A stretch of 34,548 nucleotides of DNA from Acidimicrobiia bacterium (GTDB lineage: Bacteria > Actinomycetota > Acidimicrobiia > Spongiisociales > ZC4RG35). How positions within the stretch are numbered: position 1 is the first letter of the stretch; every line of letters starts with the position of its first letter. Below the pieces are notes generated by a model. It saw nothing but the letters and a program-made list of their open reading frames with translations, was not told the DNA's origin and searched no databases. Below are positions 28,755 to 34,548 of the stretch, piece by piece. The stretch spans positions 1 through 34,548 of the forward strand of contig JAICNB010000030.1 of NCBI GenBank assembly GCA_025928935.1, in the 5' to 3' direction. The translations under genes were made by a program, and so were the position numbers.

Positions 28755-29485
28755 GTGGAATCCTGAGGTGTGCCCGCCCTGGCGGAAACGCCATTGCCGG
28801 CCACCTCGTCGAGAAACCAGTCGAGCATCGCCTCGAGGGCGGGCTGGGATTCGATCTCCCTGGCCCTGCTCTCCTCGATCAGCAGGGCGGGATCGTGGCC
28901 TGCGTCGACGAGCTCCGTCGCCCCGTCCTCTATCTCGCACCATGAGGCCAGCAGGTCACCGGTCATCTCGGGATGGAACTGAGTGGCGAGCGCCCGGCCG
29001 ATCCGAAAGGCCTGGACTCCGGATTCGTTACGGGCGAGCTCGATGGCCTGTGGCGGCAGGGTGAACTCGTCGTGATGGAACTGGAACCAGGGGCCCGCTG
29101 CGATGTGATCGGTGCTCGGCGCGATCTCGGTCCACCCGTACTCGGGCCGGGACGAGTGCCGCACCGACCCCCCCAGCGACGCGGAGATCGCTTGGGCGCC
29201 GAAGCAGATCCCGAGCAGGGGCCTCCCGGCCTCGACCCGCCTTTGGATGAATGCGAGCTCGGGCTGGACCCAGCCCTGGACCCTGTCTTCGTAGACCGAC
29301 CAAGGCGACCCCATGAGTACCACCAGGTCGTAGACATCATCGGGGAAGATGTTGCCCACCGAGGGGTCACCGATGTCCTCCACCACCACGAACGACTCCA
29401 ACCTCGCCCCACGCTTCTCCAAGTGGGCACCGACCCGTTCCGAGGTGGAGAGCGGATCGTGTTCGACGACGAGGGTTCGCACCAT
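28739..29485 (-). CDS. Class I (type 1) glutamine amidotransferase
   Basis: 248 residues, GMP-synthase-like GATase-1 fold. The nucleophile elbow is PLLGICFGAQAISASLGG with catalytic Cys, and the His-Glu pair is in ATQFHPEMTGDLL. The front half has VVLMGSPWSVYED. Homologues act alone or as the glutaminase part of amidotransferases, or as gamma-glutamyl hydrolases. No synthetase domain is attached. ATG 29485 is divergent from the glutamine-synthetase-like gene, 70 bases away. Such pairs occur in gamma-glutamylation pathways (for example PuuA/PuuD), so hydrolysis of a gamma-glutamyl intermediate is a reasonable but unproven idea. Confidence 0.83.
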   Translation of the reverse strand: MVRTLVVEHDPLSTSERVGAHLEKRGARLESFVVVEDIGDPSVGNIFPDDVYDLVVLMGSPWSVYEDRVQGWVQPELAFIQRRVEAGRPLLGICFGAQAISASLGGSVRHSSRPEYGWTEIAPSTDHIAAGPWFQFHHDEFTLPPQAIELARNESGVQAFRIGRALATQFHPEMTGDLLASWCEIEDGATELVDAGHDPALLIEESRAREIESQPALEAMLDWFLDEVAGNGVSARAGTPQDSTQMDG

Positions 29486-29537
29486 CGGGAGGGTATCAGT
29501 GGGCCCGGCTACCCCCTGTCGCAGCCCTGGTGCGCTT

Positions 29538-29545
29538 GATACTGT
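29538..29545 (+). promoter_or_regulatory. -10 region of the glutamine synthetase-like gene
   Basis: GATACTGT contains TACTGT (29540-29545), ten bases before ATG 29556, so the leader would be only a few bases. The leftward gene has TGATAC in similar position at 29493-29498. No clear -35 elements. Confidence 0.3.
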
Positions 29546-29555
29546 GTCACGGCGA

Positions 29556-30842
29556 ATGAGCGAGGTCCCTTACAGCCGCGTTCGCTTCCTCTGGCCCGAT
29601 CATCTCGGGCTGGCTCGGGGCAAGTACCTATCTGCGGCCCGGGCCGCCGAAGGATCGAATCACTGTGTCGCCCTCTTCTCCCTCCAGCTGAATCGGGAGA
29701 TGATTGCCTTCCCCGGGGCCCATCACGAGAGCTTCCCCGATGTCGAGGCCCATTTCGACCTGGACATGATCCGCCCGGGATGGGAGCGGGACACCGGCGT
29801 GGTCGTCGCCTCTATCGTCAAAGACGGGGTGCCCATCGAGCTGGCGCCCCGCTCCATCCTGGAGCGAGTGGTGGCCGACTGGAATGCAGCCGGTTACAAC
29901 CCAATGGTCGGGTTCGAGCTGGAGGCGTTCCTGTTCGAGCCCGACGAGAACCGGGGATGGCAGCCGATTCACACTCCCGGCTCTTATGTCTATGGCACCG
30001 GGACCGCCGTCGACCCGAGCGGGACAATCGAAGAGATCATGGACACCGCGCATGCCATGGGCATCGAGCTGGAGTCGGTCAACTCCGAGTACGAGGACGG
30101 GCAGTTCGAGCTGACCCTGCGCTACGACGAGGCACTCCGGGCCGCCGACGACGCCTTCCTCTTCAAGGTCATGGCGCGCGAGGTCGCAGCGAAGCGCGGC
30201 TATCTCCTGGCTTTCATGGGCAAGCCGATCACGGAGCGCGGCGGCAGCGGGATCCACGTCAATTTCTCCCTCCTCGACGAGCACGGGGAGAACGCCCTGG
30301 CCGATGCGACGGCTCCGGATGGACTCAGCTCATTGGCGAGAAGGTGCCTTGCCGGCCTCGTCAACGACCACGTGTCGATGACCGCGATCGTCGCCCCTAC
30401 CGTCAACGCCTACAAGCGCCTCAAACCCGGCTCCCTCAACGGGTACTACGCCAACTGGGGATATGACCATCGCGGGGTGGCGGTGCGGGTCCCTCCGGCC
30501 CGAGGTGAGGGAACACGTCTGGAGCACCGACTGGCCGACGGCGCCACAGCGGTGCACACGGCCGCGGCGGCGACCCTGCTCGCTGCGCTGCGTGGCGTCA
30601 CCCAGGAATTGGAGTGCCCACCGGCGGAGACCAAAGACTGCATCACGGACGTGGACGCAGATGTGACGGTGCCACCAGACCTCGGGGCGGCGCTCGACGC
30701 CCTGGAACGAGACAAGGAGTTCGTCGAGGCGTTCTCCCCCGCCTATGTCGAGGGCTTACTGGCGGTGAAGCGAGCCGAGTGGGAGCGGTTCCGCCGTCAC
30801 ACGACGGACTGGGAGATCGACGAGTACCTCGAGTACTACTGA
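29556..30842 (+). CDS. Glutamine synthetase-like gamma-glutamyl ligase
   Basis: 428 residues. Active-site blocks of the glutamine synthetase family are present: GFELEAFLFE (metal-binding Glu), NSEYEDGQFELTLRY (metal Glu), GSGIHVNFSL (nucleotide-binding His), NAYKRLKPGS, and the metal/Arg block LEHRLADG. The N-terminal beta-grasp is short (FLWPDHLGLARGKYLS). The end WEIDEYLEYY is shared with the GlnA-like proteins that glutamylate amines instead of ammonia. The adenylylation Tyr motif was not found. It is therefore probably a gamma-glutamylamide or polyamine ligase, ATP-dependent and cytoplasmic; genuine glutamine synthesis is less likely. ATG 29556 is used; an upstream frame to 29349 is antisense of the divergent amidotransferase gene. 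Confidence 0.85.
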   Translation: MSEVPYSRVRFLWPDHLGLARGKYLSAARAAEGSNHCVALFSLQLNREMIAFPGAHHESFPDVEAHFDLDMIRPGWERDTGVVVASIVKDGVPIELAPRSILERVVADWNAAGYNPMVGFELEAFLFEPDENRGWQPIHTPGSYVYGTGTAVDPSGTIEEIMDTAHAMGIELESVNSEYEDGQFELTLRYDEALRAADDAFLFKVMAREVAAKRGYLLAFMGKPITERGGSGIHVNFSLLDEHGENALADATAPDGLSSLARRCLAGLVNDHVSMTAIVAPTVNAYKRLKPGSLNGYYANWGYDHRGVAVRVPPARGEGTRLEHRLADGATAVHTAAAATLLAALRGVTQELECPPAETKDCITDVDADVTVPPDLGAALDALERDKEFVEAFSPAYVEGLLAVKRAEWERFRRHTTDWEIDEYLEYY

Positions 30843-32016: not shown

Positions 32017-33381
32017 TTGACACCCGAGATCGAAACGACGTCGGGCAGGTTGCGGCAGCGGAAGTGGACCGCCGCCCTGCTCGTCGTCGTCTCCTCGATC
32101 TCGATCATGGCCTCGATGATGGCGGTCTGGGTCCACCAGACGGTCTTCGACACCGATGCCTTCATGGAGACCATCGAGCCGGTGCTCCAGGACCCGGCTT
32201 TGAACGCGGCCCTTGGCGACTACGTAACCGACCAGGTGACAGGCGCCCTCGATCTCGAGCAGAGACTCCAGGAGCCACTGGCCAACCTCGACGCATTCCT
32301 GTCCGCCGCGCTTCTCGGCCTACTCGGAATCGATCAACAGGGTCAGGACTTCCTCGAGCGGTTCGACAGGCCGACACTTGGGGCGTTGGCGGGGCCGATC
32401 GCCGATCGTTTCAACGAGAGGATCGCCAACACCGTCGACGAAGTGATGGCCTCGCCCGAGGTCACCACCTTGATCCCGCAGATCGTCCGGCGTGGGCATG
32501 AGGCAGCGATAGCCCTGGCCCGGGGGGACATGGAGTCCCTCCCCAACCTTTCGATCGAGGATGGTGAGGTACGGCTGAACACGCTGCCGATCATCGCCAG
32601 GGTGCTCTCGGTCGTGATCGGGGAGCTGCGCGAGCTGCTGCCCGACCTGAGCCTCCCCGACTCCCTCTCGGACCGCGCCGACGAGGCGATCGCCCAGTTC
32701 AAGGAGTCGTTGGGCGAGCGGGTGCCCGACGACTTCGGTCAGCTGACCCTCATGTCCGAAGACCAGCTGGTGGAGGTCCAGGACACCGTGACGACCATCG
32801 ACCGATTGACCTGGGGGCTGGTCATCCTCTCCGTGGTCCTGGTGGTGATCACCATCCTGGTCTCGCCAACCAGACGTCGCACCGTGATCCAGCTGGGTAT
32901 CGGGGTCATCATCGCCTTGGTCGTAGGCGTCCTCGTCTTGCGCCGGGTCGAGGCCGCAGTCATCGGAGAGATTTCCAGCCCTGCCCGCACCGAGACCGCT
33001 GTTGGGATCCTGGGGCATCTCTTGGCCGGGCTCCGCCAGGGCATCGTCGCCGTCGTCGTCGTCTCCGCCCTCGTTGCCCTTGGCTTCCATGTCGCCGGGC
33101 GTCCCAAATGGGTCTCGGCAACGGGTGAGCGGCTTGATGACCTCATGCCGGCTGAGCCTGGGGCCGGGGGCCTCGAGCGATGGGTGGCACTCAACTACGA
33201 CTTCATTCGCATCGGGCTGGCCGGTCTCGCCCTGCTCGTGCTCTTCATCACCGGCATCGGCTGGATCCCCGTGCTCGTCATCGGCTTGATCCTCGCTGCA
33301 GCTTTCTGGTGGTTGTCGCGGCTCAGGGACAGGGGCTCGACTGCGCCACCCCCGACAGTGGTATCGGCCCCCGGGCCCTAA
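32017..33381 (+). CDS. Actinobacterial integral membrane protein, extracytoplasmic helical domain
   Basis: 454 residues from TTG 32017. One N-terminal membrane helix (about 19-42, LLVVVSSISIMASMMAVWVH) is followed by the family sequence VFDTDAFMETIEPVLQDPALNAAL, then a long soluble helical region to about residue 262. Further membrane helices lie at about 265-285, 290-308, 340-358 and 395-430. This layout is common in actinobacterial proteins of unknown function. TTG is taken because no ATG or GTG precedes the first helix in frame; a later ATG would cut it. It follows the DUF7144 gene by seven bases. Its stop and that of the converging BMC-P gene overlap by 3 bases. Confidence 0.8.
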   Translation: MTPEIETTSGRLRQRKWTAALLVVVSSISIMASMMAVWVHQTVFDTDAFMETIEPVLQDPALNAALGDYVTDQVTGALDLEQRLQEPLANLDAFLSAALLGLLGIDQQGQDFLERFDRPTLGALAGPIADRFNERIANTVDEVMASPEVTTLIPQIVRRGHEAAIALARGDMESLPNLSIEDGEVRLNTLPIIARVLSVVIGELRELLPDLSLPDSLSDRADEAIAQFKESLGERVPDDFGQLTLMSEDQLVEVQDTVTTIDRLTWGLVILSVVLVVITILVSPTRRRTVIQLGIGVIIALVVGVLVLRRVEAAVIGEISSPARTETAVGILGHLLAGLRQGIVAVVVVSALVALGFHVAGRPKWVSATGERLDDLMPAEPGAGGLERWVALNYDFIRIGLAGLALLVLFITGIGWIPVLVIGLILAAAFWWLSRLRDRGSTAPPPTVVSAPGP

Positions 33382-33665
33382 GTGAGCGGGCGGCTGTGGC
33401 CGTCGACGACCAACTCGTCCACGATGCCGACGACCACGGCGCGGATGGCTCCGTGATCGAGGCCGAGGATCTGCCGGGCGGAGCTCCCCTCGTCGAGGAT
33501 GAGCACAGTGTCGCCCACCCCGGCGTCCACCACATCGACGGCGATCGTGTATCCGGAGGCGTTCCCGTCCACATCCTGGAGATCGCAGAGAAGCAGACGG
33601 TGCTCGTCGAGAAGCGGGATGTTGATGGTCGAGATCACGGTCCCGGCGACGGTCCCGACTTTCAT
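33378..33665 (-). CDS. BMC-P (EutN/CcmL) microcompartment vertex protein 1
   Basis: 95 residues. The EutN/CcmL fold is recognisable: start MKVGTVAGTVISTINIP, then LLLCDLQD, a beta strand GYTIAVDVVDAGVGDTVLILDEG, and the C-terminal VVGIVDELVVDG. Such pentamers cap the vertices of bacterial microcompartment shells. ATG 33665 is chosen because GAGGA is six bases upstream; a GTG at 33668 would also overlap the previous stop. It follows the second BMC-P gene with overlapping start and stop, so both are made from one message. Confidence 0.93.
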   Translation of the reverse strand: MKVGTVAGTVISTINIPLLDEHRLLLCDLQDVDGNASGYTIAVDVVDAGVGDTVLILDEGSSARQILGLDHGAIRAVVVGIVDELVVDGHSRPLT

Positions 33666-33955
33666 CACTCTTCCTCGTCGTGGAGAGGGCGCACGTGGAC
33701 GTCGTCGACTATCCCAACGATGGCGTGATCAACGGGGACGAATCTCTCGGGGAGGGCCTCGGCCGCCTCACGGGACGCCACGAAGTAGACCAGCTCACCG
33801 GGCCCGGCCATCGACACCCCGTCGGCGGCGACCAGAGTGTCACCTTCCGGTCGGCTGGCCCGGTCCAGGGGCTGGACGATGAGGAAGCGCACCCCATCCA
33901 GGCCCGGGACCCGCTCGGTGGCGACGACGCTGCCCATCACACGGCCCAAGTGCAT
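33665..33955 (-). CDS. BMC-P (EutN/CcmL) microcompartment vertex protein 2
   Basis: 96 residues, the same fold but diverged from its neighbour: MHLGRVMGSVVATERVPGLD, FLIVQPLD, a longer loop DRASRPEGDTLVAADGVSMAGPG, VYFVASREAAEAL, and the end IVGIVDDVHV. Two non-identical pentamer proteins imply different vertices or mixed assembly. ATG 33955 lies two bases after the BMC-T stop. The order BMC-T, BMC-P, BMC-P is a compact shell cassette. Confidence 0.93.
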   Translation of the reverse strand: MHLGRVMGSVVATERVPGLDGVRFLIVQPLDRASRPEGDTLVAADGVSMAGPGELVYFVASREAAEALPERFVPVDHAIVGIVDDVHVRPLHDEEE

Positions 33956-33956
33956 G

Positions 33957-34548
33957 TCACTCGCCTCCAGAAACACGACTCAGGAAATGGAGGTCTTCCC
34001 GCAGGTTGTCCGCCATCTCACCGTGCAATTGGGCAATGAGATCGGAGCGGACCAGGGTGCCGTGGCCCTCCGCCCTGGCCGCGGCGGCGTCGAGGGCTGC
34101 CTCGACCTCGGCCACCACCCCGGAGAAGAGCACATAACCCTTGCCGCCGAGGCCATCGGCCAACCGGATAGCGCCGAGGTCGACTTCTGCCGCCTTCACG
34201 CCCGCATCGGCGGCATCGATCGCCGCCGCCACCGTCGTCGTCTCCACGATCCCCAACGCCTCATCACCCATGGTCGCGGCCAGCGCGTTCCCGGTGACGG
34301 CGCCGATCACGGTCGGATCGATGTCGGGCAAGAAGACCATGTCGGTCAGGCCGTCCGCGGATCTGCCGACCCGGACCGCCTCATCGACGCTGGCGGTGTC
34401 CCCGCTCACCAGGACCAGATAGTTACCGGGGTGCACGGTCCCGGCGTAGATGGCATCGAGGGGGGCCACCTTGACCATGGCGTCACCGGCGACGATCCCG
34501 GCGCTGATCGAGCGGAATTCGAACAATGCGATCGCCGGGCCCCGCTCA
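33957..34548 (-). CDS. BMC-T tandem-domain shell trimer protein, N-terminus outside the window
   Basis: At least 197 residues in an open frame up to the right edge; the start is off-window. Two BMC domains occur in tandem: the first around IALFEFRSISAGIVAGD and IYAGTVHPGNYLVLVSGD, the second around ALGIVETTTVAAAIDAADAGVKAAEV and GGKGYVLFSGVVAEVEAALD. Tandem-domain (BMC-T) proteins form pseudohexameric trimers, often with gated pores for larger substrates. A TTG at 34526 is possible as a start, but the frame continues with ERGPAIA, the normal lead-in to the first strand, so the protein begins further right. Sequence style resembles the single-layer type (Haliangium BMC-T1-like). Confidence 0.93.
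   Translation of the reverse strand, partial: ERGPAIALFEFRSISAGIVAGDAMVKVAPLDAIYAGTVHPGNYLVLVSGDTASVDEAVRVGRSADGLTDMVFLPDIDPTVIGAVTGNALAATMGDEALGIVETTTVAAAIDAADAGVKAAEVDLGAIRLADGLGGKGYVLFSGVVAEVEAALDAAAARAEGHGTLVRSDLIAQLHGEMADNLREDLHFLSRVSGGE

What the first reader, a model, noticed from the sequence alone, without database searches (positions are those of the whole stretch)
33378..34548. Edge of a bacterial microcompartment locus with two distinct BMC-P proteins beside BMC-T
Two diverged pentamer genes and a tandem-domain trimer gene are packed with overlapping starts. The signature enzymes lie outside the right edge. Microcompartments in this actinobacterial branch are little described, and the neighbours inside the window (a membrane protein pair) do not identify the cargo.
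Basis: partly seen in the sequence, partly recalled or inferred. Interest (0 to 1): 0.6.

Follow-up and report, generated by a model that had tools for sequence, protein, structure and literature searches.

The report
Sugar-phosphate microcompartment with altered RpiB enzyme
The window ends inside a nine-gene operon for a protein-shelled bacterial organelle of a known type (SPU, thought to break down the deoxyribose of DNA), and one of its three enzymes, always annotated as a ribose-5-phosphate isomerase, lacks the residues that carry out that reaction in every copy examined across about ten phyla, so its textbook role is probably wrong.

Summary
Window 34548-33378 (- strand) encodes a tandem-domain BMC-T and two diverged BMC-P proteins, and the contig ends there. 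The missing part lies on contig C90 of the same genome, a 45-46 nt gap away by synteny with two congeners. The full operon is RpiB, DeoC aldolase, CcmP-like BMC-T, BMC-H, BMC-P, acylating aldehyde dehydrogenase, BMC-T, BMC-P, BMC-P. It is therefore not an undescribed type: it has both signature enzymes and the BMC-P triplet of SPU (sugar phosphate utilization) microcompartments. It is conserved through the order (Acidimicrobiia), and the same operon occurs in about ten phyla.

New here: every SPU-linked RpiB I could read (110) has Asp for the catalytic Cys, with Ala for the Thr/Ser proton shuttle. Nine other active-site residues are invariant. Housekeeping RpiBs of the same class keep Cys (24 of 25). 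Twelve SPU loci fetched by shell protein alone agree. DeoC and ALDH keep their catalytic residues. No phosphotransacylase PduL was found in 60 relatives, and in only 2 of 49 SPU genomes.

[quoted passage not shown] RpiB may open the sugar ring for DeoC (inference).

The parts
33957..34548 (-). BMC-T (single trimer, tandem BMC domain), 5' end cut by the contig end (about 2 codons missing)
   Evidence: PF00936 with two stretches; orthologue 89% identical in G001; frame open at the edge
33665..33955 (-). BMC-P (P2 of the triplet); ATG start at 33955 likelier than the GTG at 33976
   Evidence: PF03319 domain starts at residue 8 of the longer ORF; lengths of orthologues
33378..33668 (-). BMC-P (P3 of the triplet), overlaps P2 by 4 nt; last gene of the operon
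   Evidence: PF03319; 40% identical to P2 and 38% to P1

Best explanation
The three window genes are the 3' end of a nine-gene SPU (sugar phosphate utilization) microcompartment operon. The rest lies on contig C90 of the same genome: RpiB 4236-3559, DeoC with N-terminal tag about 3563-2732, CcmP-like BMC-T 2748-2113, BMC-H 2063-1761, BMC-P 1724-1413, acylating ALDH 1416-1, and a divergent HTH regulator. Shown by sequence: gene content, order, intact catalytic residues of DeoC and ALDH, N-terminal tags on the enzymes, and an RpiB without the Cys base and Thr/Ser shuttle of isomerases. Inferred: 2-deoxyribose-5-phosphate enters through the CcmP-like pore; [quoted passage not shown] ALDH turns acetaldehyde into acetyl-CoA; the shell holds back the acetaldehyde. 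CoA and NAD are not recycled by any known enzyme of the operon.
For: BMC-H and a second BMC-T gene found on C90. Genes of C90 identified as DeoC (TIGR00126, E 8.8e-85, over cut-off), EutE-type ALDH (NF011927, 592.7 bits against cut-off 403), CcmP-like BMC-T (NF053796, 341.8 against 340), BMC-H and BMC-P. RpiB PF02502 at C90:3628-4041. C93 and C90 map to G001 and G002 with a gap of 45-46 nt. Same gene order across the order and in about ten phyla. DeoC Lys/Asp motifs present in 89-90 of 93 and ALDH Cys motif in 63 of 64 (residues aligned to solved structures). N-terminal tag of RpiB: motif in 78 of 86; AlphaFold shows a helix 13-30 (block pLDDT 87-93), a disordered linker, then the RpiB fold. 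The three BMC-Ps fall into three paralogue groups. SPU definition and function proposal: PMC8217296, PMC4207490.
Against: The C93-C90 join rests on synteny and bin membership, not on overlapping sequence. No deoxyribose kinase, nucleoside phosphorylase or dedicated sugar transporter lies consistently beside the operon in relatives. No PduL in the order, and the only PF01515 match in this genome is in a 764-aa frame, probably a malic enzyme-type fusion, so the standard metabolosome core is incomplete. The helical moment of the tags taken alone is not significant. No experiment on any SPU microcompartment was found in the paper library.
Confidence: 0.85

Rival explanations
1. The SPU RpiB is still a sugar-phosphate isomerase, with Asp as general base in place of Cys, on another (perhaps shorter) substrate such as glyceraldehyde-3-phosphate, the product of DeoC.
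For: Carboxylates serve as the base in other aldose-ketose isomerases (own knowledge), and M. tuberculosis RpiB uses Glu75 (PMC4783025). The usual phosphate-binding Arg113 is Gly in 81 of 99 SPU copies, which suggests a differently placed phosphate. A triosephosphate isomerase gene sits in one Atribacteria SPU locus (PMC4207490).
Against: The Thr/Ser that moves the proton between O2 and O1 is also lost, as Ala, in the same copies. Housekeeping TIM and RpiB should already do these reactions in the cytosol.
Confidence: 0.35
2. The SPU RpiB is a pseudoenzyme with a structural or cargo-scaffolding role.
For: Both isomerisation residues are gone in all copies; it carries an encapsulation-type tag and is fused to DeoC in some phyla (a fusion is also reported in PMC4207490).
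Against: Nine other active-site positions (D10, H11, D45, Y46, H102, N103, R137, H138, R141) are invariant in 99 copies, which is not expected of a dead enzyme.
Confidence: 0.12
3. The locus is an HO-type (Haliangium) rather than an SPU-type microcompartment.
For: HO shares the BMC-P triplet, related ALDH and similar BMC-T double-trimer proteins, and some HO genomes carry a tagged DeoC (PMC8217296).
Against: RpiB (PF02502) is in the main operon here and in syntenic loci; that is one of the two enzymes shared by all SPU subtypes.
Confidence: 0.06
4. It is a new microcompartment type.
For: No PduL or alcohol dehydrogenase in the operon.
Against: All SPU signature genes are present and syntenic with loci across phyla; Axen 2014 already calls SPU a metabolosome with an incomplete core.
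Confidence: 0.03

Closest known systems
SPU (sugar phosphate utilization) microcompartments, Axen 2014 / Sutter 2021
   Same: PF01791 DeoC-type aldolase, PF02502 RpiB, N-terminally tagged ALDH, BMC-P triplet, CcmP-like double-trimer BMC-T, all in one operon
   Different: No PduL, whereas Axen reports PduL in all but one of the SPU phyla of 2014. The subtype (SPU1-7) could not be assigned because the supplementary locus diagrams were not available. RpiB is described in the literature as a ribose-5-phosphate isomerase, but its catalytic Cys and Thr/Ser are Asp and Ala.
Ribose-5-phosphate isomerase B of Clostridium thermocellum (3he8/3ph3) and E. coli (2vvr)
   Same: Same fold (Foldseek E 4.9e-19, 49% identity to 3he8); same ring-opening His, Asp, Tyr and two phosphate Arg
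   Different: Cys to Asp, Thr/Ser to Ala, mostly Arg113 to Gly; plus an N-terminal tag and linker
HO microcompartment of Haliangium ochraceum
   Same: BMC-P triplet, related ALDH, similar double-trimer proteins (from PMC8217296)
   Different: RpiB is not described as a component there; here it is the first gene of the operon
RMM microcompartments of Rhodococcus and Mycobacterium
   Same: Same phylum; both have BMC-T double trimers
   Different: No aminotransferase, short-chain dehydrogenase, phosphotransferase or permease in the operon here

Membership tests
SPU microcompartment | PF01791 DeoC-type aldolase in the locus | tested here: met
   C90:2732-3793 (-), TIGR00126 E 8.8e-85 over cut-off; Schiff-base and proton-relay Lys conserved
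SPU microcompartment | PF02502 RpiB-family protein in the locus | tested here: met
   C90:3628-4041 (-), E 8.2e-52; tagged at the N-terminus
SPU microcompartment | ALDH with N-terminal encapsulation peptide (type II) | tested here: met
   EutE-type subfamily hit; N-terminal MLSDAEIQDIIERVRGRVA tag before the domain; catalytic Cys aligned to 5jfl. That the tag directs encapsulation is inferred.
SPU microcompartment | BMC-P triplet | tested here: met
   One BMC-P on C90 and two in the window; three paralogue groups on a tree with 14 other loci, 4 changes against a minimum of 2
SPU microcompartment | CcmP- or CsoS1D-like BMC-T double trimer | tested here: met
   NF053796 CcmP 341.8 bits, cut-off 340
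SPU microcompartment | RpiB is an active ribose-5-phosphate isomerase (stated function, not a naming criterion) | tested here: inconclusive
   Catalytic Cys and Thr/Ser replaced in all copies; activity not measurable here
SPU microcompartment | PduL phosphotransacylase (present in most SPU loci of 2014; not among the enzymes named as shared in 2021) | tested here: not met
   0 of 60 relatives, 2 of 49 other SPU genomes
RMM microcompartment | Aminotransferase, short-chain dehydrogenase, phosphotransferase around the shell genes | tested here: not met
   Not among the genes of C90; the operon in congeners has the same nine genes
PDU / EUT / GRM microcompartments | Diol dehydratase, EutBC or glycyl-radical signature enzyme | tested here: not met
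   None among the operon genes
HO microcompartment | Main locus without RpiB | tested here: not met
   RpiB is the first gene of the operon in this clade
Ribose-5-phosphate isomerase B (as an enzyme) | Catalytic Cys (Glu75 in M. tuberculosis) and Thr/Ser two residues on | tested here: not met
   DGAG(I/V/L)GS instead of CG(T/S)GxG in SPU copies

The most novel reading that the evidence does not exclude
In SPU microcompartments the RpiB homologue is not an isomerase. It keeps the sugar-phosphate site and the ring-opening His but has lost precisely the two groups that act on C2 and O2, the position that is deoxygenated in 2-deoxyribose. It would open the furanose ring of 2-deoxyribose-5-phosphate inside the shell, giving DeoC the rare free aldehyde form: a lumen ring-opening enzyme and a new function in the RpiB family, shared by SPU organelles across about ten phyla.
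Probability: 0.3. Interest if true: 0.7.

Novelty: new member of a known kind. Interest (0 to 1): 0.5.

Why it matters
SPU is one of the most widespread microcompartment types (more than 280 loci in 26 phyla in PMC8217296), yet I found no experiment on one, and its isomerase has had no clear role: ribulose-5-phosphate is not a DeoC substrate, and deoxyribose-5-phosphate cannot be isomerised through an enediol. The invariant Cys-to-Asp and Thr-to-Ala change shows that the standard annotation is probably wrong and turns the puzzle into a simple enzyme assay. The near absence of any phosphotransacylase in these genomes makes CoA recycling in this organelle a second concrete question.

Tried and rejected
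Looking for PduL or Pta in the operon or genome gave none, apart from a 764-aa PF01515 frame. Genes flanking the operon in relatives (ABC transporter, MurJ, polyphosphate kinase, gluconolactonase, MFS, methionyl-tRNA synthetase and others) vary between families and were rejected as cargo; flanking genes shared across phyla that I checked were regulators, ABC ATPases, a histidine kinase, a signal peptidase and others, none an obvious cargo enzyme. Hydrophobic-moment tests of the tags were not significant on their own (P 0.11, 0.64 and 0.38 singly; 0.06-0.20 on column means), so the tags rest on conservation and the AlphaFold helix-linker pattern. The scan could favour Asp-type copies because it ranks by similarity; this was checked with loci fetched by BMC-P alone. 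The tree has housekeeping RpiBs of one class only, so a single origin of the Asp type is not shown against all RpiBs.

Full report
Observation. The window is the whole of contig C93 (34,548 bases) of a 3.08 Mb genome in 144 contigs. At its right end, on the minus strand, Pfam finds a tandem-BMC-domain protein and two EutN/CcmL pentamer proteins. The genes are packed head to tail, and the first is cut by the contig end.

Finding the rest. A PF00936 search of the same genome gave a BMC-H and a weaker double-trimer hit on the 5.35 kb contig C90. The two contigs do not overlap, but both align to one contig of congener G001 and one of congener G002 with a gap of 45-46 nt between them. Gene order agrees in both congeners. 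The operon, 5' to 3', is RpiB, DeoC, CcmP-like BMC-T, BMC-H, BMC-P, acylating ALDH, BMC-T, BMC-P, BMC-P, with a divergent HTH regulator upstream.

Type. Sutter et al. 2021 (PMC8217296) state that all seven SPU subtypes share PF01791 and PF02502 enzymes, that their ALDHs lie near acetaldehyde-processing ones, and that loci with three BMC-Ps show a fixed triplet pattern. The two enzymes and three BMC-Ps are present here. Axen et al. 2014 (PMC4207490) named SPU as metabolosomes with an incomplete core and linked them to deoxyribose-5-phosphate degradation. The locus is therefore a new member of a known kind. No SPU locus in Acidimicrobiia was found in the paper library, but absence from an open-access library is weak evidence. 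In 60 relatives of the order the operon is common: 37 have some match to the window BMC-T and about 30 have its orthologue. A scan of 84,980 species genomes gave 80 loci with the same operon or parts of it in Actinomycetota, Acidobacteriota, Chloroflexota, Gemmatimonadota, Eiseniibacteriota, Fermentibacterota, Pseudomonadota, Planctomycetota and others. The nearest named ones are Acidimicrobiia MAGs, which places the window in or near that class.

The RpiB. The RpiB of this operon has a tag of the form SEQEVRSLVERVLDGV, a linker, and then the RpiB domain. Aligned to solved RpiBs, the catalytic cysteine (VICGTGLG in C. thermocellum) is aspartate and the following Thr is alanine (VVDGAGIG; Asp128 and Ala130 of the ORF). 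Mutation papers assign Cys as the base that takes the C2 proton and Thr as the shuttle between O2 and O1; C69A and C69S enzymes are dead (PMC4783025; for LacAB, PMC3755991). In 99 aligned Asp-type copies the pair is always Asp-Ala, while D10, H11, D45, Y46, H102 (ring opening), N103, R137, H138 and R141 are invariant, and Arg113 is Gly in 81. Adding more loci gives 110 SPU copies: 107 matched Asp-Ala by script, and three that the script's pattern missed read DGAG (two) and DAAG (one). Of 25 housekeeping RpiBs from the same class, 24 have Cys-Ser. The genome's own second RpiB has Cys. On a tree, SPU and housekeeping copies are separated by a branch with 100/97 support; the housekeeping sample is one class only.

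Controls for bias. Because the scan ranks by similarity to an Asp-type query, 20 BMC stretches of a Chloroflexota class were fetched by their BMC-P genes alone; all 12 that include an RpiB have the Asp type (the L215 copy was read by eye). A DNA pattern for the Asp-type motif in the 60 relatives hits 30 genomes, once each, each time at the RpiB position of an SPU locus or fragment, and none of the 28 genomes without an SPU operon. DeoC keeps its Lys/Asp motifs in 89-90 of 93 copies and ALDH its Cys in 63 of 64, so the change is specific to RpiB.

Structure. AlphaFold of an orthologous SPU RpiB from L104 (alignment A4) gives a confident N-terminal helix (13-30), a low-confidence linker (about 31-55) and an RpiB fold closest to 3he8. 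This is the usual shape of an encapsulation peptide. The helical moment of the tags is weak as a statistic.

Mechanism. Shown: gene content, tags, intact DeoC and ALDH sites, altered RpiB site. [quoted passage not shown] The lost RpiB residues act on C2/O2, which 2-deoxyribose lacks, while the ring-opening His stays. A ring-opening role that feeds DeoC with the free aldehyde is therefore a natural hypothesis (about 0.3), beside an isomerase with an Asp base on another substrate (0.35) and a non-catalytic role (0.12). Cofactor recycling is open: PduL is absent from 60 relatives and from 47 of 49 SPU genomes; the PF01515 match in this genome lies in a 764-aa frame, probably a malic-enzyme-type fusion, and three SPU relatives (G034, G040, G041) have no PF01515 match at all.

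Verdict. The finding is real, but the locus is an ordinary member of a known microcompartment type. The part worth attention is the universal active-site change in its RpiB, which I did not find described in the paper library.

Noticed in passing
G063, G078, G104, G125, G147, G158, G188, G208, G246 (family f21, same phylum); L093-L099: Small genomes (1.6-2.1 Mb) with 6-11 BMC-P genes each, including satellites of five BMC-P genes in a row (with a BMC-H in G104, L094:5504-7193). Their main locus (L093) has a class II aldolase, PduL, a PduS-like protein and a DeoR regulator, beside FTHFS and FolD. The catalogue paper knows mostly one or three BMC-Ps per locus.
   Followed up: partly
L061:8860-13689 (G005); also G017:C37 (L254) and G030:C10 (L255): A BMC-H and BMC-P operon with a glutamine-synthetase-like protein, a glutamate-synthase-domain protein and an octopine/nopaline dehydrogenase, and no ALDH among the genes examined; GS-like and opine-dehydrogenase-like genes recur in two more genera of the same family that have BMC-H hits. 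Type not recognised.
   Followed up: partly
L059 (G051) and L060 (G058), family f6: BMC-H and double-trimer BMC-T beside a phosphotriesterase-family protein, a cucumopine-synthase C-terminal domain protein, a Gfo/Idh/MocA oxidoreductase and an ALDH. Type not recognised.
   Followed up: partly
L100 (G034:C23:184000-203900): A second microcompartment locus in an SPU-bearing genome: BMC-P, BMC-H, ALDH and double-trimer BMC-T genes.
   Followed up: no
G053:C1, G034:C63, G040:C16, G046:C196, G041:C87, G048:C42, G047:C68, G049:C56, G054:C36: In many relatives the housekeeping rpiB lies within about 4-16 kb of the SPU operon rpiB, for example G053:C1 1999305 and 2009255.
   Followed up: no
window 29349-30842: Glutamine-synthetase-like gene 3 kb from the shell genes; only 33% identical to the GS-like protein of the unusual BMC locus in G005.
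   Followed up: partly
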